Positions 4,045 to 59,622 of a stretch of DNA of 64,000 nucleotides are shown piece by piece (within the stretch, counting starts at the first letter, position 1; the number at the start of each line of letters is the position of its first letter). Below the pieces are notes generated by a model. It saw only the letters and a program-made list of their open reading frames with translations. It did no database searches and was not told the DNA's origin. Both the position numbers and the translations under genes were made by a program. Source of the DNA: Clostridia bacterium (GTDB lineage Bacteria > Bacillota > Clostridia > Christensenellales > Borkfalkiaceae); NCBI GenBank assembly GCA_017468085.1, contig JAFUJR010000030.1, positions 62,001 to 126,000 on the forward strand, written 5' to 3'.

Positions 4045-4060
4045 TTCAACGCATACCTGC
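4045..4060 (-). repeat. Dispersed 17-bp motif, copy 1 (last base lost)
   Basis: Top strand TTCAACGCATACCTGC, between mgsA and the lipoprotein gene. This copy is embedded in a hairpin (4048-4073). Confidence 0.7.
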
Positions 4061-4073
4061 TATGCGTTTTTTT
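4048..4073 (+). terminator. Terminator-like hairpin built on the dispersed motif
   Basis: AACGCATA and TATGCGTT form an 8-bp stem around the loop CCTGC, followed on the plus strand by a run of seven T. The polarity would stop plus-strand transcription, yet no plus-strand gene lies nearby. It is therefore either a guard against antisense transcription or a by-product of the repeat. Confidence 0.55.
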
Positions 4074-4091
4074 GATTGTTTTTACTGCCGT

Positions 4092-4463
4092 TTAATCCGC
4101 CAAAATATAATTTGCCGTAGAACGGTTGGTTGCGATGGGAATATCGTACACCACCGCGATACGAAGCAACGCCTTGACGTCGGGATCGTGGGGTTGCGCC
4201 GCAAGCGGGTCCCAAAAGAAAATTACCTTATCAATCGCCTTTTCGCTCATCTTCGCACCGATTTGCAAATCGCCGCCGAGCGGGCCCGAAAAATACCCCT
4301 TTACCTCCAAGCCCGTCGCTTCAGACACCAACCTCGCCGTCGTGCCCGTGCCGCAAAGCTTGTATTTTTGCAACTGCTCTTTATGCGCAATCGCCCAATT
4401 CACCAAATCGTGCTTCTTGTTGTCGTGCGCAATCAGCGCAAGCGTTTTTACTTTGTTTTTCAT
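4092..4463 (-). CDS. mgsA: Methylglyoxal synthase
   Basis: Converts dihydroxyacetone phosphate to methylglyoxal plus phosphate, a bypass of lower glycolysis. The 123-aa length and motifs fit the family: LIAHDNKKHDLVNW at the N-terminus, CGTGTTARLV (phosphate binding), SGPLGGDLQIG with the catalytic aspartate, and FFWDPLAAQPHDPDVKALLR. An ATTATA element (TATAAT on the minus strand) at 4485-4490 may be a -10 box. The gene interrupts the usual polC-rimP adjacency. Confidence 0.95.
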   Translation of the reverse strand: MKNKVKTLALIAHDNKKHDLVNWAIAHKEQLQKYKLCGTGTTARLVSEATGLEVKGYFSGPLGGDLQIGAKMSEKAIDKVIFFWDPLAAQPHDPDVKALLRIAVVYDIPIATNRSTANYILAD

Positions 4464-4529
4464 ATTTTTCTCCTCTTTTGTAGTATTATATCCTTATTTT
4501 TTCGTTGGCATATACACGTTTAAAATGCT

Positions 4530-4546
4530 TTCAACGCATACCTGCC
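4530..4546 (-). repeat. Dispersed 17-bp motif, copy 2
   Basis: Top strand TTCAACGCATACCTGCC. Intergenic, between mgsA and the PolC-like gene. Identical to the copy inside ribF at 29838. Confidence 0.7.
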
Positions 4547-4574
4547 CGCCTGTTTTTCCTTTTTAGCGCCGCAT

Positions 4575-6149
4575 TTACTTTAAGCCGCCCTTGGCTTTTA
4601 CCAGCTCGATAAACACCTTTGCGGTAACGCATGCGTCGTCAAACGCGCGGTGGTGATTAAACTCAAATCCGTAATAGCCCGCAACGGAATTCAACTTATA
4701 GTTGGGCAATTTTCCGCGCAAAACGTCCTGCGCCAAAGTCAGCGTATCGTACTGTTTTTTGTCGAACGTATACCCGTTCTGTTCGCCGTAATATTGCACG
4801 AAGCGGTAGTCGAACGTAACGTTATGTCCAACCAAAATCGCGCCGTCCGTAAACTTGAAGAAATCGGCAAGCACTTTATCCACCTCGGGCGCGCCGACAA
4901 GGTCCGCGTCGCAAATGCCCGTAAGGTCGATAATTTCCCTCGAAAGTCGCTGATTGCACGCTACGAACGAAGAAAATTTTTCTACGATTTCGCCGTTTAC
5001 GATCTTTACCGCGCCGATTTCAATGATTTTATCCATCTTACCCATAGACGGCAGGTTGTTCAAGCCCGTCGTTTCCAAGTCGAAACAAACGAACACGTTC
5101 TTTTTCAAATCGTCGGGTACGAAAGTATCGTCAAACAACCCCGCCTGCGCAAAATCTACGTAGGGCTCGGGGAATACGGCGTGATAAAATTTAGGAACGG
5201 GCTTACTCTTTCTCGCAACGGGCTCAAAGTCCGCAGGGGGCGTTCCGTAATTGATTTTCGCCGCCTTAAAAGATTTAAAACCGTTGTATTCCTCATTCGC
5301 GCCCGTCAAAACGATTTTGTCGCCCACCTTAATTTGGCGCACCTTCTCCACCGTCGCTTTCTTGGGGAAATAGGTCGTACGGACGTTCCCCGTTCCGTCG
5401 CTTACCGTAACGGAAAAACGGGTGCGTTCCATATCCTCGCCCGTCTTTTCGTTGTGGCGAGTATATTTAATTTCTTCAATATATACCACGTCGCCGCACA
5501 CGGAATAAGGCTCGTCCAAATCAAAGCAATCGGACATATAAACCGCTTTGGTCGGTCTTTCGTCCGCACCGTCAATTTTTACGAAATCGCATATCGGGAA
5601 ATAACGGATCTCGCGCGCCGCAACCTCCTCGGTATCTTCGGGTATTTCGTCTAAAATAGACGCGTCGGGCGCGGCTTTTTCCACCACCCGAACGTTTCCG
5701 TAAAAGGTACCGCAATACCCGCTCATCAAATACCTGCTTACCTCGTCCAGGATTTTCCCCGACGAAAAAAGGGATTGCTCGCCCGAGGCGATCTCCACGT
5801 AAAACTGCGCGCCGCTCGTCAACATTTCCACTTTGATATCTTCCATGGAAAGAAATGCCGAAGCCGCGGGAAAATTCTTTTGAATATAGTCAAAAATTTT
5901 GTTTTTTAAGATGGCTTCGTCAGGCACGCGCTTGACGATTTTTAAGCGCGCGGTAAAACCGTCGGGCAAGTAAGCCTGACTTATCTCTTTTGCCTGCGCC
6001 TCGTCCATCGCGGAATACGTCTTGTCCGTTACCAAAAAGAATTCTGCCGAGTTATCCTTTTTCGCTACGGTGATTCCGCACAAAATCGCATTTTTTAATC
6101 CGTTCAAATTGCGGATTTCTTCTAAATACTGTTCCGTCTTACTCGCCAT
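4575..6149 (-). CDS. PolC-like protein lacking the polymerase: N-terminal, OB-fold and DEDDh exonuclease domains
   Basis: A 524-aa protein at the polC position (just after ispG). Residues 1 to about 200 resemble the PolC N-terminal region. An OB-fold follows at about 215-300 (DGTGNVRTTYFPKK...KVGDKIVLTG). A complete DEDDh 3'-5' exonuclease occupies about 352-524: FDLETTG (D357, E359), NVTFDY (about D447) and HHRAFDDAC (about H501, D505). The protein then ends. No PHP signature is seen between OB and exonuclease, and no DNA polymerase III alpha domain follows in the 110 nt before mgsA. It may act as a stand-alone proofreading or repair nuclease. It overlaps ispG by 11 nt, so the reading frame is intact and probably expressed. 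Confidence 0.85.
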   Translation of the reverse strand: MASKTEQYLEEIRNLNGLKNAILCGITVAKKDNSAEFFLVTDKTYSAMDEAQAKEISQAYLPDGFTARLKIVKRVPDEAILKNKIFDYIQKNFPAASAFLSMEDIKVEMLTSGAQFYVEIASGEQSLFSSGKILDEVSRYLMSGYCGTFYGNVRVVEKAAPDASILDEIPEDTEEVAAREIRYFPICDFVKIDGADERPTKAVYMSDCFDLDEPYSVCGDVVYIEEIKYTRHNEKTGEDMERTRFSVTVSDGTGNVRTTYFPKKATVEKVRQIKVGDKIVLTGANEEYNGFKSFKAAKINYGTPPADFEPVARKSKPVPKFYHAVFPEPYVDFAQAGLFDDTFVPDDLKKNVFVCFDLETTGLNNLPSMGKMDKIIEIGAVKIVNGEIVEKFSSFVACNQRLSREIIDLTGICDADLVGAPEVDKVLADFFKFTDGAILVGHNVTFDYRFVQYYGEQNGYTFDKKQYDTLTLAQDVLRGKLPNYKLNSVAGYYGFEFNHHRAFDDACVTAKVFIELVKAKGGLK

Positions 6150-7191: not shown

Positions 7192-7207
7192 GTTAAAAAC
7201 TCCGTTT

Positions 7208-7672
7208 TTACTTATTTTTTTCCGTTTTCATCATCTGTTTTAATTCCGTCATAAAGGAGGACAAATCCTTAAACGAACGGTAAACGGACGCATATCGCAC
7301 GTAAGAAATCTCGTCCACCTTTTTCAAGCGTTCCATGACCATTTCACCAATCGTCTTGGTCGTAATTTCGCTTTCCATGCTGTTGTAAACTTGCTTGGAA
7401 ATATCCGCCACCATATCGTCGATGACCGACATTGGCACGGGACGTTTTTCGCAAGATTTGATGATTCCGTTACGGATTTTTTCCGCGTTAAAGGATTCGC
7501 GCGTGCCGTTATTTTTCACTACGAGCACGGGTGTAACTTCAATCGTTTCGTAGGTGGTAAACCGTCTGCCGCAACCTATGCATTCCCTGCGGCGGCGTAT
7601 CGTTCTATCGTCGTCCGCACTGCGGGAATCCACCACTTTGCTCTCCGTACAATCACAATATAAACACTTCAT
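7208..7672 (-). CDS. nrdR: Transcriptional repressor NrdR
   Basis: NrdR senses ATP/dATP and represses ribonucleotide reductase genes. The 154-aa protein has the N-terminal zinc ribbon (C3-x2-C6 ... C-x2-C within RRRECIGCGRRFTTYE) and the ATP-cone domain (VVKNNGTRESFNAEKIRNGIIKSCEKRPV...). Length is standard. The 44-nt gap to rarA upstream contains one copy of the dispersed motif. Confidence 0.96.
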   Translation of the reverse strand: MKCLYCDCTESKVVDSRSADDDRTIRRRRECIGCGRRFTTYETIEVTPVLVVKNNGTRESFNAEKIRNGIIKSCEKRPVPMSVIDDMVADISKQVYNSMESEITTKTIGEMVMERLKKVDEISYVRYASVYRSFKDLSSFMTELKQMMKTEKNK

Positions 7673-7692
7673 ATTTTTCGTCCTTTTTTAGT

Positions 7693-7709
7693 TTCAACGC
7701 GCACCTGCC
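7693..7709 (-). repeat. Dispersed 17-bp motif, copy 3
   Basis: Top strand TTCAACGCGCACCTGCC, followed by TATGGCGTT, which gives a partial palindrome. It lies between the rarA stop and the nrdR start. Identical 17-mer to the copy at 59606. Confidence 0.7.
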
Positions 7710-7716
7710 TATGGCG

Positions 7717-13184: not shown

Positions 13185-13201
13185 TTCAAGGCGCACCTGC
13201 C
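13185..13201 (-). repeat. Dispersed 17-bp motif, copy 4
   Basis: Top strand TTCAAGGCGCACCTGCC, one mismatch from the majority form. Intergenic, between the membrane-protein stop and rsmD. Confidence 0.65.
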
Positions 13202-13214: not shown

Positions 13215-13955
13215 TTATTTGCGCTTTTTGGGCTTCGTGCCGGGCAAGCCGCCGTAGTTGATTTTCTTGGGCTTGTTTGCCAAGTCCTTAGAAGCTTGGT
13301 CCGCAATCTGTTGCTGACGGATAACCTTGTTTCTGCGCGCATAAGCGCCGATGATGTAAAATACGCCGGAAATAACGACGGGAACAAGCGCAAACGCGAT
13401 GGTGATAAAATATGAAATAGACGTGCCGTCCACGAAATTCGACGCGTAGAAAGGCAACACCGACCAACCCGAAATCAAAGTCAAAATCATCGTCGGCGCA
13501 TTCAAGCCGTTTGCGTCAATATCCGACTGCATACAACCGAACACGATACCCGTGGCGATTGTTAAAATCGCCGTGATCGCCCCGAAAGTAAACCCTTTCC
13601 AAACGCGGTATTCTTTCGCCTCTTTGTGCGAGGACATTTTGTAAGGATTGCCGTAAGCGTCCTCCGTGGAACGTTTTACGTTACCCGAAACGAGCTGCTC
13701 GTAATGGGACCCGCCGTGCGCCCAACAGATAAGCCCGTTATACGCCGCCGCCGCTACGATACAGACAATCGTCCAAATCTTGGTGGACGTTTTCCAAACC
13801 ATTTTAAATTCCGTACTTTCGGAACTCGATCTGGACATCAACATAAACATGATCAATCCCGCGCAAATATACATAAACAGCGAAGGTAAGGACGCCTTAA
13901 CGATCTCCCAGACGTATCTACCAAACCATTTAAGTTTTTTCTTTACGTTTGCCAT
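13215..13955 (-). CDS. Predicted integral membrane protein of unknown function
   Basis: 246 aa with about five hydrophobic segments: 20-40 (SLFMYICAGLIMFML), 58-75 (IWTIVCIVAAAAYNGLIC), 118-140 (TFGAITAILTIATGIVFG), 155-170, and 180-205 (ITIAFALVPVVISGVFYIIGAYA). The C-terminus is basic and cytoplasmic (KPKKINYGGLPGTKPKKRK). No family is recognised. A clear ribosome-binding site (TAGGAG) supports the start. It sits between 5-formyl-THF cyclo-ligase and rsmD, with no functional hint from neighbours. Confidence 0.8.
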   Translation of the reverse strand: MANVKKKLKWFGRYVWEIVKASLPSLFMYICAGLIMFMLMSRSSSESTEFKMVWKTSTKIWTIVCIVAAAAYNGLICWAHGGSHYEQLVSGNVKRSTEDAYGNPYKMSSHKEAKEYRVWKGFTFGAITAILTIATGIVFGCMQSDIDANGLNAPTMILTLISGWSVLPFYASNFVDGTSISYFITIAFALVPVVISGVFYIIGAYARRNKVIRQQQIADQASKDLANKPKKINYGGLPGTKPKKRK

Positions 13956-13982: not shown

Positions 13983-14612
13983 TCAGTTTTTTCTTTTGGG
14001 CGCAAGTATGCGCTTTTCCGTTACGATAAAATCCAATTGCATATCCCGCTTTTCCGACGGCACGTCGTTTTGTATTTGAAAATCGTAACAATACCCAATC
14101 CGCAACGCTTGCGGATGATTTTGCAGATACCTATCGTAATATCCGCCGCCGTACCCAAGCCGATTCCCTTGCTCGTCCACGGCAAGTAAGGGCGTGATTA
14201 CAACGTGCATTTCTGCTTGCGACGGCTCGCCGATGGGCTCTCGTATGCCGTATCGGTTGACGGAGAAATCCTCTCCGCACTCCACCGCCAAAAGTTTCCC
14301 GTTTTCTATCCTCGGCGCGTACGTCTTTGCGCCCCGTAAAGCCAAGCCTTCAACAAGCTTGTCCGTCGGCGCTTCCAAGGAGTAGGATAGGTAAGTAAAC
14401 ACGTTTAAACGCGTACCTGCCCCCTCTGTTAACAAAATTTCCTCGCTTAACGCCGCATAGAGCTTGAAGAAATTTTTAACCAAACGCTCCTCTTTTATAT
14501 CCCTGTTTTCATTTTGCGCGCGCCGCTTTTTGGCGTATTCGCGCAGTTGCCTTTTTCTTTCTTCCACCGACAAAGACGGCGTTTCGACAAATGTAAATTT
14601 ATTCGTATCCAT
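13983..14612 (-). CDS. 5-formyltetrahydrofolate cyclo-ligase
   Basis: ATP-dependent conversion of 5-formyl-THF to 5,10-methenyl-THF. The true start is MDTNKFTFVE; the frame upstream merely reads through alr. Family motifs: ERKRQLREYAKKRR (substrate-binding arginines), the glycine-rich loop GNRLGYGGGYYDRYL and the C-terminal VPSEKRDMQLDFIVTE. Residues GAGTRLNV in the middle are encoded by a copy of the dispersed 17-bp motif. 209 aa, overlapping alr by 14 nt. Confidence 0.92.
   Translation of the reverse strand: MDTNKFTFVETPSLSVEERKRQLREYAKKRRAQNENRDIKEERLVKNFFKLYAALSEEILLTEGAGTRLNVFTYLSYSLEAPTDKLVEGLALRGAKTYAPRIENGKLLAVECGEDFSVNRYGIREPIGEPSQAEMHVVITPLLAVDEQGNRLGYGGGYYDRYLQNHPQALRIGYCYDFQIQNDVPSEKRDMQLDFIVTEKRILAPKRKN
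14405..14421 (-). repeat. Dispersed 17-bp motif, copy 5 (inside 5-formyl-THF cyclo-ligase)
   Basis: Top strand TTAAACGCGTACCTGCC. Read in the gene frame as GCA GGT ACG CGT TTA AAC (A G T R L N). Confidence 0.65.
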
Positions 14613-17563: not shown

Positions 17564-18251
17564 CTTGCAACACTCCTTCCAATCTTTGTTTGCGCCGTTG
17601 TAATTCCGCCCGATTTTCCTCGCTGATAGAAGGCTCAGACAGATATTTATCCAAGTTTTTAACCAGCTTTTTCATGCGGGAAACGAACGCCTCGCCCATC
17701 CGCGCAAGATTTTCTCTGCCGAACTCATATTCCGCGTCCGTGTAGGGCTTTAGGCAAATTTCATCGCATACCTGCCCCCCGCCTTTTTTTGCGCCGCCGA
17801 CGATCACCTCGTAATATTTTCCGTCGAAAAAGGTAAAATCCCGCACGATATACCCCCCGTTTTCATGGATATACCTGCGCAATTTTTCCGCGTCGTGCAT
17901 GGGCTGAAAAACAAACCGCGCGGGCATAAACCCGTGTTCCTCGTGCGAGAGAATGTGGATGATTTCACTGCCGCCCATACCGGCAATCAATACCTGCTCG
18001 GTATCTTTCGGCACGCCGAAAAATCCGTCGCCAAGCACGGAAATCGCCTTGCCCGAACGAAGATAGGGCGAGAGTAAACTTTCCGCTTTTGCCAAACTTC
18101 CCTTGCTCACGTCGGATAAAATCGCCCGTTCGCAAAGCCCGTTTTTCAGCATATATTCGCTGCAATAACCGTGGTCGCACCCTACGTCGGCAAAGGTTTT
18201 GCAGGGCGCAAGCAAGGAACACAGCGTGTCGATCCGCTTTCCGTAGCTCAT
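17550..18251 (-). CDS. trmK: tRNA (adenine(22)-N(1))-methyltransferase TrmK
   Basis: SAM-dependent methylation of A22 in tRNA. The 233-aa protein starts RIDTLCSLLAPCKTFADVGCDHGYCSEYMLKNG, with motif I as FADVGCDHGY, followed by LIAGMGGSEIIHIL and FVFQPMHDAEKLRRYIHENGGYI. The stretch GGGQVCDEI is encoded by a copy of the dispersed motif. It lies immediately after rpoD with a 1-nt overlap. Confidence 0.94.
   Translation of the reverse strand: MSYGKRIDTLCSLLAPCKTFADVGCDHGYCSEYMLKNGLCERAILSDVSKGSLAKAESLLSPYLRSGKAISVLGDGFFGVPKDTEQVLIAGMGGSEIIHILSHEEHGFMPARFVFQPMHDAEKLRRYIHENGGYIVRDFTFFDGKYYEVIVGGAKKGGGQVCDEICLKPYTDAEYEFGRENLARMGEAFVSRMKKLVKNLDKYLSEPSISEENRAELQRRKQRLEGVLQGEIK
17760..17776 (-). repeat. 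Dispersed 17-bp motif, copy 6 (inside trmK)
   Basis: Top strand TTCATCGCATACCTGCC. Gene frame CAG GTA TGC GAT GAA (Q V C D E), a different phase from copy 5. Confidence 0.65.
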
Positions 18252-22388: not shown

Positions 22389-22405
22389 TTCAACGCGTAC
22401 ATGGG
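22389..22405 (-). repeat. Dispersed 17-bp motif, degenerate copy 7
   Basis: Top strand TTCAACGCGTACATGGG. The first 12 bases match exactly; the CCTGCC end is altered. Confidence 0.45.
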
Positions 22406-29377: not shown

Positions 29378-30236
29378 TCTCTCTTACCGTCCTTATATCT
29401 GATTGTAGTTGCGAAATCAACTCGTCCGCGCATCCAAATTTTTTTACGGGGCGCATATAGCGCACAAACTCGACTTTCAACGTTTTGCCGTATAAATTTC
29501 CGTCGAAACCGTCAAGATAGGTTTCCGTAAGCACCTGCGCGTTGTCGAAGGTCGGGCGCGCACCGTAGTTGGTGATACATTTATACGCTTTACCGTCTAA
29601 ACAAACGCGCGTTTCGTACACGCCTTGCTTTAAGGGAAATTTTTCCTTGGGATAAAGAATATTCGCCGTAGGAAAACCGAGCGTCCTGCCTACCTGCCTA
29701 TCTTTCACCACCTCGCCGACGAGGAAGAAATTTTCGCCCAAAAGCGCGTTCGCCTTTTGCATTTCACCCGCTTCCAGCAAGGCTTTCACGGCGCGAGAGC
29801 TGATTTTTTCACCGTACATTTGCATGAGAGGCTGAATTTCAACGCATACCTGCCCCACCCGTTTGATAAATTCGGGCGTGCCCAACGCGCCTGCGCCAAA
29901 ACGGAAATCCTCCCCGCAGACGAAAAGTTTGGGGTTAAATTCCGTCGTTAATTTTTGTAAAAATTCCTCGGCGGAAAGGTCTTTGATTTCGGAAAAAGGA
30001 AGCTCGAACACAAAATCCACGCCGTTTTCACGGAAGATACGTTCCCTTTCGGCAAAGGTGAAAATATTTTCTTGCGCCTTGCCACCGATAATCGTCATCA
30101 CCCCGACGGGCAAGCCGCTCCGTTTGGCGTATGACAAAAGACGACGGTGCCCTAAATGTAAGCCGTCGAAGCCGCCCAGGAGCATCGCGCTCCCCTTGGT
30201 CATATCCTTTTGTGTAAACCAAACCGTTTTTAACAT
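29370..30236 (-). CDS. ribF: Bifunctional riboflavin kinase/FAD synthetase
   Basis: Makes FMN and FAD. 288 aa. The N-terminal FAD synthetase domain shows LGGFDGLHLGHRRLL (HxGH-like) and CGEDFRFGAGALGTPEF. The loop ISSRAVKALLEAGEMQKANALLGENF follows. The C-terminal kinase domain carries VGRTLGFPTANILY, GVYETRV and the PTF motif. Residues VGQVCVEIQ lie on an in-frame copy of the dispersed motif (29838-29854). It overlaps truB by 7 nt (standard truB-ribF pair). Confidence 0.95.
   Translation of the reverse strand: MLKTVWFTQKDMTKGSAMLLGGFDGLHLGHRRLLSYAKRSGLPVGVMTIIGGKAQENIFTFAERERIFRENGVDFVFELPFSEIKDLSAEEFLQKLTTEFNPKLFVCGEDFRFGAGALGTPEFIKRVGQVCVEIQPLMQMYGEKISSRAVKALLEAGEMQKANALLGENFFLVGEVVKDRQVGRTLGFPTANILYPKEKFPLKQGVYETRVCLDGKAYKCITNYGARPTFDNAQVLTETYLDGFDGNLYGKTLKVEFVRYMRPVKKFGCADELISQLQSDIRTVREND
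29838..29854 (-). repeat. Dispersed 17-bp motif, copy 8 (inside ribF)
   Basis: Top strand TTCAACGCATACCTGCC, identical to copy 2. Gene frame CAG GTA TGC GTT GAA (Q V C V E). Confidence 0.7.
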
Positions 30237-36115: not shown

Positions 36116-36357
36116 TTGCCTTCACCTCGCACCTGCCCCTCACCTTTTTCCTTTTTTGCCTTACCGTAGAGCAGTTCTTCCAATGCTTTTTCCCTCTCCT
36201 TGTGGCGCATTTGTAACTCCTCCATTTTTTTTGCGATCCGCGCGTCGATTAAAAGGCGAGAATATATCCCTGCCTTCTTCGCCGCCAGTCCCTCCATTTG
36301 GAGCAAAAGCTCTATTTGCGCCCGCTCGTTACCCGTTCTTTCATAATTTGCTTGCAT
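36112..36357 (-). CDS. Small coiled-coil protein of unknown function
   Basis: 81 aa, helical and rich in K/E/L/A (IAKKMEELQMRHKEREKALEELLYGKAKKEK). The C-terminal GEGQVRGEGK is encoded by a motif copy at 36121-36137. A GGGGGTG ribosome-binding site precedes the ATG. Together with the overlapping gene it forms a two-gene unit of unknown role, between mscL and nth. Confidence 0.6.
   Translation of the reverse strand: MQANYERTGNERAQIELLLQMEGLAAKKAGIYSRLLIDARIAKKMEELQMRHKEREKALEELLYGKAKKEKGEGQVRGEGK
36121..36137 (-). repeat. Dispersed 17-bp motif, copy 9 (end of small gene)
   Basis: Top strand TTCACCTCGCACCTGCC. Gene frame GGG CAG GTG CGA GGT GAA (G Q V R G E). Confidence 0.5.
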
Positions 36358-37126: not shown

Positions 37127-37143
37127 TTCAACGCGTACCTGCT
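37127..37143 (-). repeat. Dispersed 17-bp motif, copy 10
   Basis: Top strand TTCAACGCGTACCTGCT. Intergenic; its end touches the stop of the DUF3343 gene. Confidence 0.65.
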
Positions 37144-39474: not shown

Positions 39475-40173
39475 TTACACAATCGAAAAACCGCCGTTGA
39501 CGGGGATATCTGCGCCCGTAACGTAATCGTTTTCGTACAGATATTCCACGGCGCGCGCGACGTCCTCGCCCGTGCCCAGCCTGCCCATGGGAATTTCTTC
39601 TTTAATCGCCTGTATATCTTCGACGGAAAAATGGGCGTTCATCGGCGTATCGATCACGCCCGGCGAAACGCTGTTAACGCGAACGCCCGACCAACCTAAC
39701 TCTTTTGCGAGGGCTTTGGTGAAGCCAAGAAGCGCGGCTTTGGAAGCGGAATACACACTCTCGCAACTGCCGCCGACTTCCCCCCAAACGGAAGAAATGT
39801 TGACGATAAGTCCGTTTCTTTTATCAATCATACTCCTTGCCGCTTCGCGCGAGCAAAGAAAAGCGCCGCCCATATTTACGGACATCACCCGCTCATATTC
39901 CTCGTAGGAAATATCTTGTATTTGCTTGATAAGGGAAATGCCCGCGTTGTTGACGAGCACGTCCACCCTGCCGATTTTTTTAAAGAGCGACGCAACCTCG
40001 TCTTCCTTGGAAACGTCCGCTTTGTACACCTCGACGCCCAGCGCAGCAAGGGAATTTGCATTTTCTTCATCGCGGGAATATACCGCGCAAACGCGGAACC
40101 CTTTTTGTTTGAATTTTAAGGCGATACTTCTGCCTATCCCACGGACGCCGCCCGTGATTAAAATTGTTTTCAT
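39475..40173 (-). CDS. Short-chain dehydrogenase/reductase (FabG-like)
   Basis: 232 aa classical SDR. Cofactor site TGGVRGIGRSIALKF, NNAG motif (VLVNNAGIS), catalytic Ser in VNISSVWGEVGG and the Y-x3-K in YSASKAALLGFTKALAKELG. Basic residue at the start of beta-2 (YSRDEE) suggests NADPH. The substrate is unknown; 3-oxoacyl-ACP reductase is the closest family. It is the last gene of the aro run, and its start codon lies inside a copy of the dispersed motif. Confidence 0.88.
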   Translation of the reverse strand: MKTILITGGVRGIGRSIALKFKQKGFRVCAVYSRDEENANSLAALGVEVYKADVSKEDEVASLFKKIGRVDVLVNNAGISLIKQIQDISYEEYERVMSVNMGGAFLCSREAARSMIDKRNGLIVNISSVWGEVGGSCESVYSASKAALLGFTKALAKELGWSGVRVNSVSPGVIDTPMNAHFSVEDIQAIKEEIPMGRLGTGEDVARAVEYLYENDYVTGADIPVNGGFSIV

Positions 40174-40185
40174 CGCGTACCTGCC
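40169..40185 (-). repeat. Dispersed 17-bp motif, copy 11 (on the SDR start codon)
   Basis: Top strand TTCATCGCGTACCTGCC. On the minus strand the ATG follows GGCAGGTACGCG directly, so the motif may also supply the ribosome-binding site. Identical to copy 12. Confidence 0.7.
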
Positions 40186-41197: not shown

Positions 41198-42001
41198 TTA
41201 TTTTTGTATAAATTGACGGTAAAACGCCGTCGCTTGCTTATCGTTTGGCGTTATATCCAAATACAGACAATCGGCGTAGTAGGCTTGATAAAAAAGCATT
41301 GCCGCGCCGTTTAAAATTTGCAATCCCTGCGCCTCGGCAAGGCGTAAAAATTCCGATTTTTCGGGGGTATAAATCAAGTCGATTGCCACGCTTGCACCCT
41401 CGAACGCCTGCGCCGTTACGGGGGAACGCCCTTCGCTGTCGTGCATACCCACGCCCGTGCAGTTGACGAGAATATCAAAACCGCCTATCTCTGCGCCGTC
41501 GGCAGGCGTAACGCCTATCTCCGCGCAGGTTTCCAACAGCTTTTCCCTACGGCGTTGATACATATATACGTCCGCGCCCGCTTTTTTGAGGATCGCCGCC
41601 GTACTTCTGCCCGAACCGCCGCCGCCAAGGACGAGGATTTTTTTATTTTTCACCTCAATATTCGCTTCGCGGAGCATCAGCATGAAGCCCGCGCCGTCCG
41701 TGTTGTAACCCTTTCCGCTTGCCGTTACGACGGTATTGACCGCCCCGAAATCGAGCGCGTCGCCCGTAACCTCGCTTAAATATCCCATTACGTCGCGCTT
41801 GTAGGGAATCGTAACGTTGAAGCCGTCGAAATCCCCCATCAACGTGCGCATCGTGCTGTCAAAATCCTGCATAGAAACGGAATAGCGAGTATACTCGCAA
41901 TCCACGCCGAGCCGCGCCAAAATGAAGACGTGGATTTTTCCGCTTGTCGATTTAGAAACGTCTTTTCCAACAAGGGCAAGGCGTAATTTTTTTACGTTCA
42001 T
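41198..42001 (-). CDS. aroE: Shikimate dehydrogenase
   Basis: NADPH-dependent reduction of 3-dehydroshikimate. 267 aa. Motifs: RLALVGKDVSKSTSGKIH (substrate serines), FDGFNVTIPYKRDVMGYL (catalytic Lys), FGAVNTVV, GYNTDGAGF (catalytic Asp), the cofactor loop LVLGGGGSGRSTA and the C-terminal NGAAMLFYQAYYA. The start codon is inside a motif copy. Confidence 0.94.
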   Translation of the reverse strand: MNVKKLRLALVGKDVSKSTSGKIHVFILARLGVDCEYTRYSVSMQDFDSTMRTLMGDFDGFNVTIPYKRDVMGYLSEVTGDALDFGAVNTVVTASGKGYNTDGAGFMLMLREANIEVKNKKILVLGGGGSGRSTAAILKKAGADVYMYQRRREKLLETCAEIGVTPADGAEIGGFDILVNCTGVGMHDSEGRSPVTAQAFEGASVAIDLIYTPEKSEFLRLAEAQGLQILNGAAMLFYQAYYADCLYLDITPNDKQATAFYRQFIQK

Positions 42002-42013
42002 CGCGTACCTGCC
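41997..42013 (-). repeat. Dispersed 17-bp motif, copy 12 (on the aroE start codon)
   Basis: Top strand TTCATCGCGTACCTGCC, the same 17-mer and the same placement as at the SDR gene. Confidence 0.7.
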
Positions 42014-42019: not shown

Positions 42020-43276
42020 TTAGCCTAATTTCAAGCCGATTTTTTCAAAGAAATCGGGGAAAGAAATCGCGCAGCATTCACCGCGGGAAAGATTGCCGCC
42101 ATTTTCCGACGCGATCATTCCCACCGCCGCCGTCATGGCGATCCTGTGGTCTAAATAACTGTCCATATCTCCGCCGCGAAGTTTGCGCTTGCCACGGATG
42201 CTCCAACCGTCGGGAAGCTCGGTGCAATCGCCGCCGAGGCGATTGATAAGCTCCGCCGTCGTGCGGATTCTGTCGCTCTCTTTCACACGAAGCTCCTTCG
42301 CGCCCGTGATACGGCTCTCGCCGTCCGCAAACGCGCATAAGAGCGCAATTAAGGGCAATTCGTCAATCATTGCAGGCACGTCCTGCGCCGTCAAAGAAAT
42401 GCCGCGCATATCCGATTTTTCGACGAGAATATCCGCCTTTTCCTCACCGCCCGAAACACCGCGATGAAGTAAAGAATACCGTACGCCCAACCGCTCGAAC
42501 GCCGTCAAAATGCCCGTGCGCGTAGGATTTACGCCGACGTTTTTGCAAAGGGTTTTGCCCTTGAGTGCGCCGAGCGCCATAAAATACGCCGCCGAGGAAA
42601 TATCCGCAGGCACGCAAACGTCCACCGCTTGAAGGTTGCTCTTTTTGACCGCCACGGAATTGCCGTCTACGCGTATATCCGCACCCATCGCCGCAAGCAT
42701 ACGCTCGGTATGATCTCGGGACGGAATGGGCTCGGTCAGGATCGTTTCGCCGTCGGCGGAAATTCCCGCAAGCAGCACCGCGCTTTTCACTTGCGCAGAC
42801 GAAACGGAAATATCCACCTTTGCGCCGCGTAAGGGTTTGGGCAAAACGCATACGGGCGCGTGTCCGTCCGTCGTTTGGATTTCCGCGCCGAGCAAAGACA
42901 ACGGCTCGGCAACCCTTTTCATGGGACGGGAGGACAGCGACGCGTCGCCCACGAGGGTGGCTTGGACTTGTTTCCCTGCCAAAAAGCCCGTCAAAAGGCG
43001 AATAGTCGTACCCGAGTTTCCGCAATTTAATCGTTGGCCCTGCCGAAAATTCGGCGTGCCTTTGATATGCAGCGATTGACCGTCCGCTTCAATTTCCGCG
43101 CCCAACGCGCGCATACAGTCCATGGTGGAAAGGCAGTCCTCGCCCATGAGCGCGCCCGTAACGAACGCTTCGCCCTCCGCGCCTGCATTGAACATGATTG
43201 CGCGGTGGGTTATCGATTTGTCGCCGGGGAGAGTAAACTCGCCCTCAAAATATCCCCTGCCATCAATTCGTTGCAT
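42020..43276 (-). CDS. aroA: 3-phosphoshikimate 1-carboxyvinyltransferase (EPSP synthase)
   Basis: 418 aa. Motifs: LPGDKSITHRAIMFNAGAEGE (PEP/S3P-binding Lys), LNCGNSGTTIRLLTGFLAG, DASLSSRPMKRV, SSAQVKSAVLLAGI, VPADISSAAYFM, IDELPLIALLCAFADGES and DHRIAMTAAVGMIAS. The LNCGNSGTTIRL signature has Gly at the glyphosate-sensitivity position and no obvious class II substitutions. The start is within the GGAGGCAGGTATGC sequence, which is again a motif copy. Confidence 0.96.
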   Translation of the reverse strand: MQRIDGRGYFEGEFTLPGDKSITHRAIMFNAGAEGEAFVTGALMGEDCLSTMDCMRALGAEIEADGQSLHIKGTPNFRQGQRLNCGNSGTTIRLLTGFLAGKQVQATLVGDASLSSRPMKRVAEPLSLLGAEIQTTDGHAPVCVLPKPLRGAKVDISVSSAQVKSAVLLAGISADGETILTEPIPSRDHTERMLAAMGADIRVDGNSVAVKKSNLQAVDVCVPADISSAAYFMALGALKGKTLCKNVGVNPTRTGILTAFERLGVRYSLLHRGVSGGEEKADILVEKSDMRGISLTAQDVPAMIDELPLIALLCAFADGESRITGAKELRVKESDRIRTTAELINRLGGDCTELPDGWSIRGKRKLRGGDMDSYLDHRIAMTAAVGMIASENGGNLSRGECCAISFPDFFEKIGLKLG

Positions 43277-43283
43277 ACCTGCC
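43267..43283 (-). repeat. Dispersed 17-bp motif, copy 13 (on the aroA start codon)
   Basis: Top strand TTCGTTGCATACCTGCC. The aroA ATG is the ATG of GGTATGC. Confidence 0.55.
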
Positions 43284-43307: not shown

Positions 43308-44363
43308 TTATTTTACGTATTTAATTAAGCAATTTTTATATTCCGCAAAGGGCAAGTCCAACATCGTCCATGCCCCTTTATCTTTTGCCACCGCCATACG
43401 GATTTTGCCGTCGTCTGCGTTCTTCTTGTCCGCTCTTGCGTTTTCTGCCGCTTCCCCTATTTGGGAAAAGTCGGGAACGGATTGGGGCGCAACCGCCAAC
43501 GCCTTATCAATGAGCGCAAGCAATCTTTCGCCGTACACTCGGTTGCAAACGCCTTGCTCGATGGCGATTTTCGTTTCGATACGCATACCAAAGAGCACCC
43601 CCTCGCCGTGGGAAAGCCCGCTTGCAAGCTCAATGGCGTGCCCCGTCGTATGCCCGACGTTTAAGGACTTGCGCTCCCCGTTTTCCTTTTCGTCCGCTTC
43701 CACCACCCGAGCCTTATGGCGAATACAAAGCCCCGTTAACGACGCCCAAAAGTCAAGGTCGTCAAACTTCCCCGTATTACGCTCCAGCTCGTCAAAAATT
43801 TCAGCGTTGAGCGCGGCGTATTTGACGATTTCCCCAAGTCCGCACTTAATTTCACGAGGGGGCAAGGTCTTTAAAAACTCGGACGAAACGAGCACCTCGC
43901 AGGGTTGATAAAACGCGCCCACGACGTTTTTTACGCCGCCCAAATCCACCGCCGTTTTTCCGCCGACGCTGCTATCTACCTGCGCGAGCAGGCTTGTGGG
44001 AATTTGCACGCAAGACACGCCGCGCATAAAAAGCGCTGCCGCAAGCCCTGCGATATCCCCCACTACGCCGCCGCCAACGGCGAACACGCGCGAAGTTCGA
44101 TGCATACCTGCCCTCGCCATTTCGTTTAAAATGGCTTGCAATTCGCTGAAATTCTTATTTTCTTCCCCGGCAGGCAAAACGAAAATTCGCGCGTCTGAAA
44201 AATATTTTTCAAACCATGCGGAATAGAGGGCGCGTACGTTGCTGTCCGTAACGACAAAGTTTTTTTGACCCGCCGTCAAAACAGGCAAGCGCGCCGTTAT
44301 CGCCTCTGTGCCGATATGAATTTGGCTCTCCATAGAAGGAGCTTTTAAAGTTATCGTCTGCAT
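43308..44363 (-). CDS. aroB: 3-dehydroquinate synthase
   Basis: NAD- and metal-dependent cyclisation of DAHP. 351 aa. Motifs: PAGEENKNFSELQAIL, VFAVGGGVVGDIAGLAAALFMRGVSCVQIPTSLLAQVDSSVGGKTAVDLGGVKN, CGLGEIVKYA (metal Glu), LNVGHTTGHAIE (metal His) and SHGEGVLFGM. The stretch ARAGMHRTSR is encoded across a motif copy; this loop is normally variable. Confidence 0.95.
   Translation of the reverse strand: MQTITLKAPSMESQIHIGTEAITARLPVLTAGQKNFVVTDSNVRALYSAWFEKYFSDARIFVLPAGEENKNFSELQAILNEMARAGMHRTSRVFAVGGGVVGDIAGLAAALFMRGVSCVQIPTSLLAQVDSSVGGKTAVDLGGVKNVVGAFYQPCEVLVSSEFLKTLPPREIKCGLGEIVKYAALNAEIFDELERNTGKFDDLDFWASLTGLCIRHKARVVEADEKENGERKSLNVGHTTGHAIELASGLSHGEGVLFGMRIETKIAIEQGVCNRVYGERLLALIDKALAVAPQSVPDFSQIGEAAENARADKKNADDGKIRMAVAKDKGAWTMLDLPFAEYKNCLIKYVK
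44096..44112 (-). repeat. Dispersed 17-bp motif, copy 14 (inside aroB)
   Basis: Top strand TTCGATGCATACCTGCC. Gene frame GCA GGT ATG CAT CGA (A G M H R). Confidence 0.6.
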
Positions 44364-44373: not shown

Positions 44374-45513
44374 TTACGGAAGTTTGTTATAGCGTTCTGC
44401 TACTTCCGCCGCCGTATCGCCGCCAAGCCGCTTTGCCACGGCGTTTGCAAGCACCTCGGCAACTACCGCCTCCGCAATGATTTCTAAGGCAAAAACGGCG
44501 CATACGTCGCTCCGCTCCGTTGCGGCAACCGTACCGCTCTTATCTGCAAAATCCACCGTCTTCAAGCCTTGCATCAAGGTGGGAATAGGCTTCATTGCCA
44601 CGCGCAAAATCAGTTCTTCGCCGTTGGACATACCCCCTTCAATACCGCCCGCGCGGTTGGTTTCGCGGTAAAATCCACGCGCTTCGTCGTAGAAAATTTC
44701 GTCGTGGATTTCCTTGCCGCTCTTTTCCGTAACGGAAAAACCCGCGCCGATTTCCACGCCCTTGACCGCCTGAATGCTCATCAAGCCTTGCGCGAGCTGC
44801 GCGTCCAGCTTTTCCGCGTACGTCATCATACTGCCAAAGCCGCTTTTAAGCCCTTTGACGCGGATCTCTACGCCGCCGCCCGCCGTATCTCCCGCCGCTT
44901 TTAACGCAGTGATTTTTTCAATCGCTTGCTCTTCGAGTTTTTCGTCAAGCATACCGAGCGCCGTCGTTTTTGCGCGCAAGAGCTCGTTAAACGCATACCT
45001 GCCCCCGTCTTTTACGCCGCAGACCTCGTAAACGTAGCCCGCAATTTCAACGCCCAACGCGGCAAGATAGCTTTTAAACACCTCGCCCGCCGCCACGCGG
45101 ATTGCCGTTTCACGCGCGGACGCTCTCTCCAAAATGTTCCGTGCGTCTTCTTGCGCAAATTTCAGCATTCCCGTCAAATCGGCGTGTCCGGGGCGGACTT
45201 TCGTAACGCGTTTTGCCGCCATAGCCCCATCGTCGCAATTTTCCGCAGACATACAAGTTTCCCAATTTGCAAAATCCTTGTTATAAATGCAGAGAGTTAC
45301 GGGACTTCCAAGCGTTTCGCCGTTTCTTACGCCCGTCAAAATTTCCACGCGGTCTTTTTCGATTTTTTGGCGCGCGCCGCGGCCAAAACCGCTCTGTCGA
45401 AGGGCGAGCGCCCCGTTGATTTTTTCCGTTTCTATTTTTAAATGCGCGGGCAAGCCCTCGATAATGGCAACGAGCGCTTTGCCGTGCGATTCACCCGCCG
45501 TCGTGAGTTTCAT
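44374..45513 (-). CDS. aroC: Chorismate synthase
   Basis: FMN-dependent final step to chorismate. 379 aa. Motifs: TTAGESHGKALVAIIEGLPA, RQSGFGRGARQKIEKD, VRPGHADLTGMLKF, ARNILERASARETAIRVAAGE, AGGIEGGMSNGEELILRVAMKPI and a C-terminal R-S-D-V-C-A pattern. The segment KDGGRYAFNELL is on a motif copy. First aro gene after clpC, 12 nt apart. Confidence 0.96.
   Translation of the reverse strand: MKLTTAGESHGKALVAIIEGLPAHLKIETEKINGALALRQSGFGRGARQKIEKDRVEILTGVRNGETLGSPVTLCIYNKDFANWETCMSAENCDDGAMAAKRVTKVRPGHADLTGMLKFAQEDARNILERASARETAIRVAAGEVFKSYLAALGVEIAGYVYEVCGVKDGGRYAFNELLRAKTTALGMLDEKLEEQAIEKITALKAAGDTAGGGVEIRVKGLKSGFGSMMTYAEKLDAQLAQGLMSIQAVKGVEIGAGFSVTEKSGKEIHDEIFYDEARGFYRETNRAGGIEGGMSNGEELILRVAMKPIPTLMQGLKTVDFADKSGTVAATERSDVCAVFALEIIAEAVVAEVLANAVAKRLGGDTAAEVAERYNKLP
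44987..45003 (-). repeat. Dispersed 17-bp motif, copy 15 (inside aroC)
   Basis: Top strand TTAAACGCATACCTGCC. Gene frame GGC AGG TAT GCG TTT AAC (G R Y A F N), the third phase. Confidence 0.65.
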
Positions 45514-50623: not shown

Positions 50624-50640
50624 ACCAGGTACGCGTTGAA
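50624..50640 (+). repeat. Dispersed 17-bp motif, single plus-strand copy 16
   Basis: Plus strand ACCAGGTACGCGTTGAA; only the first two bases and C3 region differ from the common form. Lies between genes near the proS terminator. Confidence 0.55.
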
Positions 50641-52709: not shown

Positions 52710-53032
52710 CTTCATACCTCCACAATTTCTTTTGCAATATTTTAACACATTTTTGCCCGCAATGCAACCTCTAAACACGCCTTTTTATATTTTTTCTTAC
52801 GAAAAATTATCGCAAAACACGTTCATCTCGTACCTGCCCCTATGTTTTTACAAAATTTTTAACACAAAAGACGGGATTACTCGCTTCGCTCGTAGTGTCG
52901 TTGCTCGACACCCGTCGTTGTATTTCGTATTTCCACATTATCCGCAACTCGCACGTAAGGAGCTTGCGACGGAATAGCGAGCCTGCGAGCGTCAGTCGTG
53001 GTAATCCACGAGTTCTCACGAGTCTGTAACGC
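52710..53032. other. Gene-free region with dispersed motif and small inverted repeats
   Basis: No gene seen. Includes a motif copy (52822) and several short inverted repeats: GTGTCG-TTGCT-CGACAC near 52900, CGTGG-TAAT-CCACG near 53000. The 52870-53020 part is rich in CGCTCG/GCGAGC and may be a degraded interspersed repeat. Confidence 0.5.
52822..52838 (-). repeat. Dispersed 17-bp motif, copy 17
   Basis: Top strand TTCATCTCGTACCTGCC; the second half matches, with two or three changes in the first. Intergenic. Confidence 0.55.
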
Positions 53033-54767: not shown

Positions 54768-54808
54768 TCCCCCGCTCTGCATAGCGCAGACGCAAAACGG
54801 AGAATTCT

Positions 54809-57733: not shown

Positions 57734-57785
57734 ATCCCTTTCCGCCGTTCCTGCGGCGGGGGATAAACGATACGGAGTATACCTT

Positions 57786-59585
57786 ATGTTAAATTGGAAA
57801 AAAGTGATACAGCTCACCCTCGCATTCTTGTGCGTGGGGACAACCGCTCTTGCGATTGCGTGCGACAACGAAACGCCCGCAAACAGCGACCTTTCCTCCA
57901 CTACGGAAAGCGGATTGGATACGGAAAGCGACACGAACGGTAGCGACAGCAACGATACGGGAAGTGGCGGCGACAGCAGCGACACGAACAGCGGCGGCGA
58001 AGATATAGACGCCCCCTGCGAACACGTTTGGACGGCTGGCGGCATTTACGAATCCCCCTCCTGCACCAACGCGGGCAAACGCCTCTACGTATGTGAATTA
58101 GACCCCGACCACACCGAGCTGCGCGAAATCGGTTTTACACACGAATGGAGCGAGTGGACGTTCAGCGTAGAACCTACCTGTACGGAAGGGGGCGAAAAGA
58201 TACGCCATTGCTTACATTGCGAGGACGTAACGGAAACCGCGCCCGTTGCCGCATGGGGGCACAAACTGGACAACGGCATTTGCGAACGTTGCGAATACGG
58301 TCCCGTCTACCCCGAAGCGCCCGATAAAATCAATTACAGAAAACCCACCGCAAGCACGCCCGATATGGGCATTGACCCTTACGTCCGTTTCTCTCTCAAC
58401 GAGGGCTATTACGAATTCACGATTGGCAAAGAAGGAGTGCTTTGGGTGGACTGTAAAGTACCGAGCGCAGGACAGTACGCCTTATATTCCACCAACACGC
58501 CCACGGGCGTAACGGCGAAGAATCACGGCTCCAACACCTTCTTCATCAACGAAGCGGACGGCGTTGCGGCGCGTTCCCTGCCCGACGGAAATTTCTATGC
58601 GTCTATCAACGTTTCCGACGAGTTCTGGCACGACAGTTTCTGCCAAATTTTCGCATTCCGCGGCGCACCCGACACGGTTGTCCAAGTCCGTTTCGTCCGT
58701 ATTGACGAGGCGCAACAAGGCGTAAAATACGCAACGGAAACCGTTTATCCCCGTCAAATTGGCGAAAAAGCGAAAGACAGCGTAAGCGGTATGCAAATTA
58801 CCGTCGTCCCCTATACTTCCAAATATTATTATGACGAAACGAGCGGCTATTACCGCATGGGCACGTCTGCCGACCCCGGCGAGATCATTTACGTGGCAAT
58901 CACGAAAAAGGCAACGCGCATCAACGATTCGCTCGCTTTTGCCGATTTGGCGACCTTGGGCGTAGGCTACGCTTTGCACCACCACGACGATATCGACGGC
59001 ACGAAAGTATACAGAGATTACGCTTGGTTTTTGTGCAATTACGGCGGCGTAGGTAAAACGTCGGAAACGGGCAGAGATTTCATTCCCAACGAGGGGGACG
59101 AGAACGCGCTCTGCTACGAAAATTACGTCAACAACGACGGCGTATATCCCGTTACGCCCGAGCTTAAAGAGTTTCTTGAACTTTACGTTTCTTTGAATAC
59201 GCCCGTTACCCTGCAAGGGGAAACAAACCCCGCCGTTTTAGCGAACGCTTGGTTAGCGGCTTGTTATTATTACAAGGGTGTGCCTATGGGCGAACAGAGC
59301 AATCCCATCCCCGCAACCCCTTCCACATTTCAAGTAACGACAAGAGAACAGCAGTATACCTACTATGCGATATTCGCAGACGCGGAAGCCACGGAAACGC
59401 GCACCTATACTGCGACCATCACCGACGAAAATGCATTCGTTTACTTCGAGGACAAATCGTATAAAGGCGCTCAAACCTTTACCTTTACCCTCGATCCGAA
59501 CGAAAAAATCGTCTTTTACGTAGGGGCGCTCGATTATACGAGCATCAGCTTCACCATTACGGTTACGGAAAATAACGAAGCGTAA
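57786..59585 (+). CDS. Lipoprotein with Cys/His-rich repeats and the same surface module
   Basis: 599 aa. Lipobox LAIAC (Cys about 26) and a Gly/Ser/Asp linker to residue 76. Then a Cys/His-rich segment of three repeats, HVWTAGGIYESPSCTNAGK..C, HEWSEWTFSVEPTCTEGGEKIRHCLHC and HKLDNGICERCEYG, of a type seen in Clostridial surface proteins. A beta domain follows, then the module also found in the 974-aa neighbour (YPVTPELKEFLELYVSLNTPV...AWLAACYYYKG). A C-terminal beta domain (QQYTYYAIFADAEATETRTYTATI) ends it. Function unknown. Confidence 0.78.
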   Translation: MLNWKKVIQLTLAFLCVGTTALAIACDNETPANSDLSSTTESGLDTESDTNGSDSNDTGSGGDSSDTNSGGEDIDAPCEHVWTAGGIYESPSCTNAGKRLYVCELDPDHTELREIGFTHEWSEWTFSVEPTCTEGGEKIRHCLHCEDVTETAPVAAWGHKLDNGICERCEYGPVYPEAPDKINYRKPTASTPDMGIDPYVRFSLNEGYYEFTIGKEGVLWVDCKVPSAGQYALYSTNTPTGVTAKNHGSNTFFINEADGVAARSLPDGNFYASINVSDEFWHDSFCQIFAFRGAPDTVVQVRFVRIDEAQQGVKYATETVYPRQIGEKAKDSVSGMQITVVPYTSKYYYDETSGYYRMGTSADPGEIIYVAITKKATRINDSLAFADLATLGVGYALHHHDDIDGTKVYRDYAWFLCNYGGVGKTSETGRDFIPNEGDENALCYENYVNNDGVYPVTPELKEFLELYVSLNTPVTLQGETNPAVLANAWLAACYYYKGVPMGEQSNPIPATPSTFQVTTREQQYTYYAIFADAEATETRTYTATITDENAFVYFEDKSYKGAQTFTFTLDPNEKIVFYVGALDYTSISFTITVTENNEA

Positions 59586-59605
59586 AAATTAGGCGTAAAA
59601 TAAAA

Positions 59606-59622
59606 TTCAACGCGCACCTGCC
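59606..59622 (-). repeat. Dispersed 17-bp motif, copy 18
   Basis: Top strand TTCAACGCGCACCTGCC, same 17-mer as copy 3. It forms the left arm of the following terminator. Confidence 0.65.

What the first reader, a model, noticed from the sequence alone, without database searches (positions are those of the whole stretch)
4045..59622. A dispersed 17-bp motif, about 18 copies in 64 kb, almost all in one orientation
Top-strand TTCAACGCRYACCTGCC (minus-strand GGCAGGTRYGCGTTGAA) recurs at 4045, 4530, 7693, 13185, 14405, 17760, 22389 (degenerate), 29838, 36121, 37127, 40169, 41997, 43267, 44096, 44987, 52822 and 59606; one reverse copy is at 50624. Several are exact duplicates (4530 = 29838; 7693 = 59606; 40169 = 41997). 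17 of 18 point the same way. A 17-mer at this density cannot be chance. It could be a polar genome signal (Chi- or KOPS-like), an uptake-type sequence, or a small mobile element. I know of no described family with this sequence.
Basis: seen in the sequence. Interest (0 to 1): 0.82.

Follow-up and report, generated by a model that had tools for sequence, protein, structure and literature searches.

The report
Replication-polar DNA-wrapping sites across chromosome
The chromosomes of a group of uncultured ruminant-gut bacteria are dotted with a fixed DNA sign that is flanked on both sides by evenly phased AT-rich stretches, as if built to wrap around a protein such as DNA gyrase, and that mostly points along the direction of DNA replication.

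Summary
In detail: all 18 places are present (0.5 matches expected by chance). The 17-mer is the centre of a much larger site. The core is AAAnGAnGGGGGCAGGTAYGCGTTGAA, with rarer left halves on the same right half. It sits between AT-rich tracts repeating every ~11.6 bp, symmetric about core position ~4, detectable on average to about 100 bp each side. Sites are DNA-level: they hit every reading frame and both gene strands. They are enriched between genes, often within 30 nt after stop codons, and rare between divergent genes. 150 of 181 run with the inferred leading strand (188 of 242 with a third genome). Many are kept in place between species; they are abundant only in one clade of one uncultured Clostridia genus. 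Best explanation: a chromosome-wide set of strong DNA gyrase sites, with phased arms wrapping the enzyme and a strict core fixing it. The architecture resembles the published gyrase motif and Mu strong gyrase site, but the period is longer, the arms reach further, and three estimates of the cleavage point disagree, so the protein is not proven. Rivals: another DNA-wrapping organiser, or an uptake sequence (ComEC is present). A new variant of a known kind, possibly more.

The parts
4045..4061 (-). core, AGCAGGTATGCGTTGAA; intergenic
   Evidence: flank z 0.4
4530..4546 (-). core G-type, exact; intergenic; phased AT arms
   Evidence: flank z 2.7
7693..7709 (-). core G-type, exact; between the stop of the gene at 7717-9045 and the start of an NrdR-like gene at 7208-7672
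   Evidence: flank z 2.9
13185..13201 (-). core G-type, 1 mismatch; intergenic, after the stop of the gene at 13215-13955
   Evidence: flank z 2.7
14405..14421 (-). core G-type, 1 mismatch, inside a 5-FTHF cyclo-ligase gene
   Evidence: flank z 2.1
17760..17776 (-). core G-type (A13 variant), inside a TrmK-like methyltransferase gene
   Evidence: flank z 1.0
22389..22405 (-). core C-type (CCCATGTACGCGTTGAA), exact member of the second class; intergenic
   Evidence: flank z 2.5
29838..29854 (-). core G-type, exact, inside a riboflavin kinase/FAD synthetase gene
   Evidence: flank z 2.3
36121..36137 (-). core G-type, 2 mismatches, inside a small called gene
   Evidence: flank z 1.1
37127..37143 (-). 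core G-type, 1 mismatch; intergenic
   Evidence: flank z 1.2
40169..40185 (-). core G-type, A13 variant; its ATG is the start codon of the gene at 39475-40173
   Evidence: flank z 1.2
41997..42013 (-). core G-type, A13 variant; its ATG is the start codon of the gene at 41198-42001
   Evidence: flank z 1.4
43267..43283 (-). core-like, 3 mismatches, over the start of an EPSP synthase gene (42020-43276)
   Evidence: flank z 1.7
44096..44112 (-). core G-type, 2 mismatches, inside a called gene
   Evidence: flank z 1.0
44987..45003 (-). core G-type, 1 mismatch, inside a called gene
   Evidence: flank z 1.7
50624..50640 (+). core, 1 mismatch to the ACCATG class; the only one of the 18 copies in the opposite direction; intergenic, next to a terminator-like hairpin
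   Evidence: flank z 3.9 (highest in window)
52822..52838 (-). core G-type, 2 mismatches; intergenic; arms not phased
   Evidence: flank z -0.2
59606..59622 (-). core G-type, exact; forms an imperfect inverted repeat with a partial second copy 3 bp away
   Evidence: flank z 1.5
4430..4646 (-). example of a whole site: core at 4530-4546 plus about 100 bp on each side, the reach over which AT tracts phased at ~11.6 bp are seen on average over sites

Best explanation
The motif is the specificity core of a large, chromosome-wide set of strong DNA gyrase sites. Shown: a strict, directional ~26-bp core; AT-rich tracts phased every ~11.6 bp on both sides, symmetric about core position ~4; frequent conservation in place; a position after genes and away from divergent promoters; orientation mostly with the inferred replication direction. 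Inferred: the AT tracts are minor-groove-inward bends that let both arms wrap right-handedly on the GyrA C-terminal domains, while the core lies in the DNA gate and sets register and direction. Gyrase bound there would remove positive supercoils arriving from co-directional transcription and the fork, and the direction of the core would decide which arm is presented as the strand to be passed.
For: Phasing: own genome, 81 deduplicated sites, power 0.25/0.26 against control maxima 0.027/0.026 in 150 random sets; the same in 44 coding and 37 intergenic sites; symmetry r=0.88 at position 4.0. Weights learned on 181 sites from relatives' loci score 81 own sites with AUC 0.89, falling to z -1.1/-1.2 when shifted by 5-6 bp (some relatives' sites are orthologous to own ones). 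Architecture: the E. coli gyrase motif has a 36-bp centre and two 47-bp arms with 10.75-bp GC periodicity (PMC6379681, section 23 read). If the cleavage gap is laid on core positions 3-6, its arms should begin at -14 and +23; the first AT tracts here are at -18..-14 and 22..26. All three gyrases mapped in PMC12324340 show 10-11-bp periodic arms, topo IV does not or only weakly (section 12 read). The Mu strong gyrase site, fetched with its annotated cut, has AT peaks ~35, 47, 59 and 70 bp to the right of the cleavage centre. Place: 90 of 181 sites are intergenic although intergenic DNA is 11.5%; 64 of 112 intergenic sites with a co-oriented upstream gene lie less than 30 nt from its stop; divergent gaps 2 against 15.4 expected. 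Gyrase in E. coli accumulates downstream of active units (PMC6379681, passages). The GyrA/ParC family is found in 41 of 41 genus genomes.
Against: No binding data. Period 11.5-11.8 bp, not 10.75; faint periodicity reaches ~100 bp, beyond the 65 bp of the E. coli motif. Three estimates of the cleavage centre disagree: AT symmetry 4-4.5; the published gate preferences (-4G, -2A, +1G, +4C) fit best at 7.5 by hand; matching the Mu right arm asks for about 1. On Mu our arm model does not peak at the known cut: z 2.4, 2.25 or 2.0 four bp away (ranks 215, 280, 554 of 25,622 for three arm lengths), z 3.97 fifteen bp away with one arm length, and other Mu positions score as high. The Mu right arm's best period is 10.9 to 12.0 depending on the stretch taken, and 0.4 to 8% of Mu windows are as periodic. 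The sister clade has the same enzyme family but almost no sites. In E. coli downstream regions do not have raised motif scores (PMC6379681, passage). No gyrase is known to me to need a strict core. Ten chance 17-mers in unrelated taxa also have positive mean flank z (0.9-1.0, without an antiphase dip).
Confidence: 0.45

Rival explanations
1. A dedicated chromosome-organising protein, not gyrase, binds the directional core and wraps or bends about 200 bp around itself, marking replichores like a polar nucleoid or segregation signal.
For: Strict asymmetric core with alternative left halves; arms longer than gyrase's; leading-strand polarity (150 of 181); uneven density: 2 sites in the first 160 kb of G026 C1 against 21 in the next 240 kb; sister clade with the same GyrA/ParC family lacks the sites.
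Against: No candidate protein was found, and none was sought gene by gene; a wide right-handed wrap with phased AT is a known hallmark of gyrase.
Confidence: 0.28
2. A DNA-uptake sequence of a naturally competent Clostridia genus, with phased AT tracts helping DNA deformation at uptake, as in Haemophilus USS.
For: Clade-specific, high copy, in all reading frames, intergenic excess, inverted pairs (five overlapping 29-bp pairs) as uptake sequences have; ComEC match in 41 of 41 genus genomes; Haemophilus USS has bent AT tracts beside its core (PMC7811141, passages).
Against: Arms are two-sided, about 100 bp and symmetric; sites are polar and uneven along the chromosome; ComEC is equally present in species without the motif.
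Confidence: 0.12
3. A polar signal for a DNA motor or recombination enzyme (KOPS- or Chi-like).
For: Leading-strand bias 150 of 181; in convergent gaps, where no gene direction is favoured, 14 of 15 follow the leading strand.
Against: Such signals are short and unphased (recalled); here the arms carry independent information (AUC 0.89). Density is low, about 1 per 6-12 kb. On the G034 contig polarity is weaker (30 of 44) and absent in the 74 kb around its origin (7 to 9 of 17, depending on where oriC is put).
Confidence: 0.08
4. A dispersed mobile or REP/RAYT-type repeat.
For: High copy; five inverted overlapping pairs and four tandem pairs at 31-32 bp.
Against: 17 of 25 alignable own sites kept with up to 3 mismatches in G026 at 73% flank identity, no insert in the printed alignments; unrelated flanks; Y1 transposase matches in G000 and G026 but none in site-rich G034.
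Confidence: 0.03

Closest known systems
E. coli gyrase motif (Topo-Seq, PMC6379681)
   Same: central ~36 bp between two arms with phased AT/GC content, symmetric about the centre; gyrase enriched downstream of transcribed units
   Different: E. coli motif is degenerate with no fixed core and 10.75-bp period; here a strict directional 26-bp core, 11.5-11.8-bp period, longer arms, replication polarity
[quoted passage not shown]
   Same: ~150-bp site with phased AT right arm, outer peaks ~11-12 bp apart; arms of Mu SGS are functionally unequal, so direction matters
   Different: single copy in a phage; left arm dispensable (PMC10052514, passages); no similarity to this core was looked for beyond the arm model; best local arm match lies about 4 bp from the cut centre
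REP/BIME-2 elements of enterobacteria
   Same: dispersed, mostly extragenic, some bind gyrase (PMC6379681 passages)
   Different: REPs are palindromic and tied to RAYT (recalled and listing); this core is asymmetric, also inside genes in all frames, often kept in place
Haemophilus USS / Neisseria DUS
   Same: short core in hundreds of copies, lineage-specific, AT tracts beside the core (USS), inverted pairs
   Different: no two-sided 11.6-bp phasing over ~200 bp and no replication polarity known to me (recalled)
KOPS / Chi
   Same: leading-strand polarity
   Different: short signals without phased arms (recalled)

Membership tests
Strong gyrase site / gyrase motif | Central ~36-bp segment between two arms with helically phased AT/GC content | tested here: met
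Strong gyrase site / gyrase motif | Arm period 10-11 bp (10.75 in E. coli) | tested here: not met
   11.5-11.8 bp; Mu right arm itself 10.9-12.0 bp by stretch
Strong gyrase site / gyrase motif | Gate preferences -4G/+8C, -2A/+6T at the symmetry centre | tested here: inconclusive
   one half fits at 7.5, not at the AT symmetry centre 4-4.5 (compared by hand)
Strong gyrase site / gyrase motif | Arm model finds a known strong gyrase site | tested here: inconclusive
   Mu: z 2.0-2.4 four bp and z 3.97 fifteen bp from the cut centre, other peaks as high
Strong gyrase site / gyrase motif | Binding, wrapping and cleavage by gyrase | not testable with these tools
   needs purified enzyme or Topo-Seq
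DNA uptake sequence | Competence channel present in carriers | tested here: met
   ComEC family match 41 of 41, but also in motif-poor species
DNA uptake sequence | Preferential uptake of site-bearing DNA | not testable with these tools
   needs transformation assay
REP/RAYT | Palindromic unit with cognate RAYT in carriers | tested here: not met
   core asymmetric; no Y1_Tnp match in site-rich G034
KOPS/Chi-like | Leading-strand polarity | tested here: met
   150 of 181; weaker on G034 C2, 30 of 44, and absent near its oriC
KOPS/Chi-like | Recognition by FtsK/SpoIIIE or RecBCD/AddAB | not testable with these tools
   none

The most novel reading that the evidence does not exclude
A bacterial clade has evolved a sequence-addressed, directional DNA-wrapping system: one fixed ~26-bp core with interchangeable left halves inside a ~200-bp right-handed wrapping code, repeated every ~6-12 kb, aligned with replication and placed behind genes, so that topology is controlled at fixed addresses rather than at degenerate sites. 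The wrapper is either a gyrase that has become sequence-specific or an unknown architectural protein.
Probability: 0.5. Interest if true: 0.9.

Novelty: new variant of a known kind. Interest (0 to 1): 0.76.

Why it matters
The E. [quoted passage not shown] Here is a clade whose candidate sites can be read from sequence, tens to over a hundred per genome, in dozens of species. That would make testable whether gyrase position is hard-wired, why it should be directional, and how a chromosome-wide set of sites arises, since the sister clade lacks it. If the wrapper is not gyrase, a new chromosome-organising system awaits identification.

Tried and rejected
Start-codon/ribosome-binding-site reading: codon 13-15 of the core coincides with a called start in 6 of 242 sites; 40169 and 41997 in the window are such. 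Rejected as the general cause.

RNA element: Rfam gives only tRNA-Ser in the window; sites occur in all frames and both gene strands.

Mobile insert: rejected by conservation in place. The loci were mostly picked because they hold the motif, so only the comparison (own stretches against G026 stretches) is used for counts; even there the G026 stretches beyond C1 were chosen partly for having sites.

A different dispersed motif in motif-free G001: the top k-mers turned out to be a 69-bp tandem array in one place. Not a replacement motif.

gyrA as a preferred neighbour: motif within the fetched downstream stretch in 3 of 30 gyrA loci. Rejected as a rule.

Finding other core classes from arms alone: the top 206 arm maxima in own sequence hold 13 core sites with up to 5 mismatches against 1 of 206 random, and in G026 4 of 220 against 1 of 220; no new class emerged (the weights there came partly from the same sites).

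Genome-wide 11.3-11.5-bp AT periodicity: present in three motif-rich genomes and in pooled relatives with sites masked. Motif-poor genomes are mixed: G001 and G028 lack it, G031 unclear, pooled G007/G002/G010 looks like the rich ones with an interval touching zero. Not used as evidence.

Negative control for arms: 10 chance 17-mers in unrelated taxa have mean z 0.9-1.0 without antiphase dip, 7 viral contigs 0.2-0.3, 114 genus sites 1.58 with -0.9/-0.7 at 6 bp shift. The first is less clean than hoped.

Full report
1. Is it there? Yes. One search finds 19 matches at up to 3 mismatches (0.52 expected, largest 3 in 100 shuffles); all 18 reported places are among them. The own genome (G000, 2.06 Mb in 62 contigs) has 169 matches at up to 2 mismatches against 1 for the reversed pattern. 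That count is inflated: contigs C23 and C29 share DNA at 100% identity. Later counts leave C29 out or deduplicate, except the logo.

2. Where else? Of 36 other genomes of the genus searched, 34 have it (3 to 96 matches at up to 1 mismatch) and 2 have none; of 24 genomes of other families 1 has a single match. In a wider draw of 150 other genomes of the order (those 24 among them, 8 of the same family), 7 have one match each and none more; the reversed control gives 8 in 6 genomes. A capped scan of public genome contigs (115 stretches, listing in part) is dominated by ruminant-gut 'Clostridia'/'Clostridiales bacterium' MAGs, with 10 stretches that I set aside as unrelated taxa. In viral contigs there are 7 exact matches. 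A midpoint-rooted GyrA tree of 30 species puts G001, G002, G007, G010, G028 and G031 (0-8 matches) in one clade with full support, opposite the 24 others (10-116 matches in 22; two not counted).

3. What is it? The logo of 91 own hits (not deduplicated) extends the 17-mer to AAAnGAnGGGGGCAGGTAYGCGTTGAA. Other left halves occur on the same right half TAYGCGTTGAA: CCCA-CCCATG, ACC[AG]TG and a few GGCGTG/CCCGTG; the 'degenerate' window copy at 22389 is one. Patterns for all classes give 181 sites in 711 kb of own and 795 kb of G026 DNA (116 and 65), against 4 for the reversed patterns, and 61 more in 374 kb of G034.

4. Phased arms. Averaged over 279 deduplicated sites, AT content rises and falls every ~11.6 bp on both sides of the core. 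Smoothed maxima lie at -98, -86, -74, -63, -51, -39, -27, -16 and at 24, 36, 48, 59, 71, 83, 93, 105: symmetric about position ~4, strongest near the core. Own genome alone: 81 sites, 150 random sets, power about nine times the control maximum; coding and intergenic sites behave alike. Held-out scoring: AUC 0.89, 54% of sites above the 95th percentile of random positions, mean score inverted on a half-turn shift; the part 66-104 bp from the centre still carries signal (t 4.2). Single sites vary: for the 18 window sites z runs from -0.2 to 3.9.

5. Placement. Of 181 sites 90 are intergenic although called genes cover 88.5%. Of 87 with both neighbours, gaps between divergent genes have 2 against 15.4 expected, convergent 15 against 10.9, co-directional 70 against 60.8. 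In the set (279 sites, relatives included), 112 of 143 intergenic sites follow a co-oriented gene, 64 of them less than 30 nt after its stop (two of these overlap it). Genes are my own simple ORF/hexamer calls, not a published annotation. Intragenic sites fall in all three frames and on both strands: 92 on the gene's strand, 39 opposite.

6. Direction. 150 of 181 sites run with the leading strand inferred from gene majority, which GC skew supports at 180 of 181 sites. Convergent gaps, which favour no gene direction: 14 of 15 with the leading strand. Genes on the leading strand: 63 of 81; on the lagging strand: 6 of 10, so gene and replication direction are only partly separated. Cores with other left halves: 35 of 44 with the leading strand, so G-richness is not the sole cause. 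On G034 C2 the bias is weaker, 30 of 44 below 300 kb, and absent (7-9 of 17) in the 74 kb around its origin (dnaN, yidC, jag, holB, DnaA-box clusters and skew switch at 328-340 kb); with that contig the total is 188 of 242. Density is uneven: 2 sites in the first 160 kb of G026 C1, 21 in the next 240 kb.

7. Evolution. Of 80 own sites, 25 could be aligned to the held part of G026; 17 keep a core with up to 3 mismatches at the same place while flanks average 73% identity, 8 do not. In 46 alignments counted in both directions, the core is at least 15/17 identical in 59% against 21% of random 17-column windows. Where it is lost, the printed alignments show substitutions and gaps of at most 10 columns inside the core. 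Against the motif-free G001 only 1 own site could be aligned, so how sites arose was not tested.

8. Pairs. Among 242 sites in own, G026 and G034 stretches, nine neighbours lie within 150 bp (4.7 expected by chance at any spacing). All nine stand at 12 bp (five, opposite, a 29-bp inverted pair, perfect or nearly so) or 31-32 bp (four, same direction). Their number is unremarkable, their spacing is not: as if only some overlaps of two wraps fit (inference).

9. How it may work. A two-sided, symmetric, phased bending pattern with a period above 10.5 bp suggests DNA wound on a protein in a right-handed sense (inference). DNA gyrase is the classical right-handed wrapper: its E. coli motif has a 36-bp centre and two phased 47-bp arms (PMC6379681, section 23 read); the Mu strong gyrase site has AT in minor grooves facing the protein and a 156-bp loop (PMC11626157, passages) and an essential phased right arm (PMC6463007, section 22 read; PMC10052514, passages). 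Placing the gyrase cleavage gap on the AT symmetry centre puts the arms where the first AT tracts begin. I therefore commit to strong gyrase sites at 0.45.

10. What does not fit is told in the evidence-against field: longer period, longer arms, three disagreeing cleavage centres, the Mu scan missing the cut by 4 or 15 bp, the enzyme family shared with the site-poor clade, and an imperfect negative control. A distinct wrapping protein (0.28) or uptake sequence (0.12) remain open.

11. In print. Six 15-17-mers of the core occur in no paper of the held library; other searches (at most 12 titles and abstract starts seen in each) listed no such chromosome-wide site family that I recognised. Papers opened: passages of PMC12393610, PMC6379681, PMC12324340, PMC10052514, PMC11626157, PMC7811141, PMC6463007, PMC3814380, and the sections named above. 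Subscription literature is not covered.

Noticed in passing
G000 contigs C23 (about 6-67 kb) and C29: Same DNA at 100% identity in opposite orientation at every tested place: the MAG holds redundant contigs.
   Followed up: partly
G000 C20 14035-31991, C60 128173-170526, C23, C1: TCGGTATGACA, 17 copies against 0.2 expected, some in inverted clusters: another dispersed repeat of this genome, possibly MITE-like, not in the window.
   Followed up: partly
G026 C1 250.5-251 kb and 313.6-313.8 kb, C15, C13, C5: A family with GACTGGATGCA / AGTCTTATCTA / GGGTTAGATAC / AACTGTGGAGA 11-mers, dispersed and clustered.
   Followed up: no
G000 C17 3768-4185; G001 C14 37.9-39.0 kb: Tandem repeats of 45 bp and 69 bp, probably protein repeats.
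   Followed up: no
G034 C2 45895 (dnaA) and 328-340 kb (oriC region): dnaA lies about 290 kb from the dnaN/yidC/jag origin region, on the strand opposite to most genes around it.
   Followed up: partly
window 40169-40185 and 41997-42013; 5 ATG and 1 TTG cases of 242 sites: Core variants GGGGGCAGGTACGCGATGAA double as ribosome-binding site and start codon.
   Followed up: partly
G004 C28 20448-21781: A GyrA/ParC-family frame is split in two with one TGA inside; assembly error or decay not checked.
   Followed up: no
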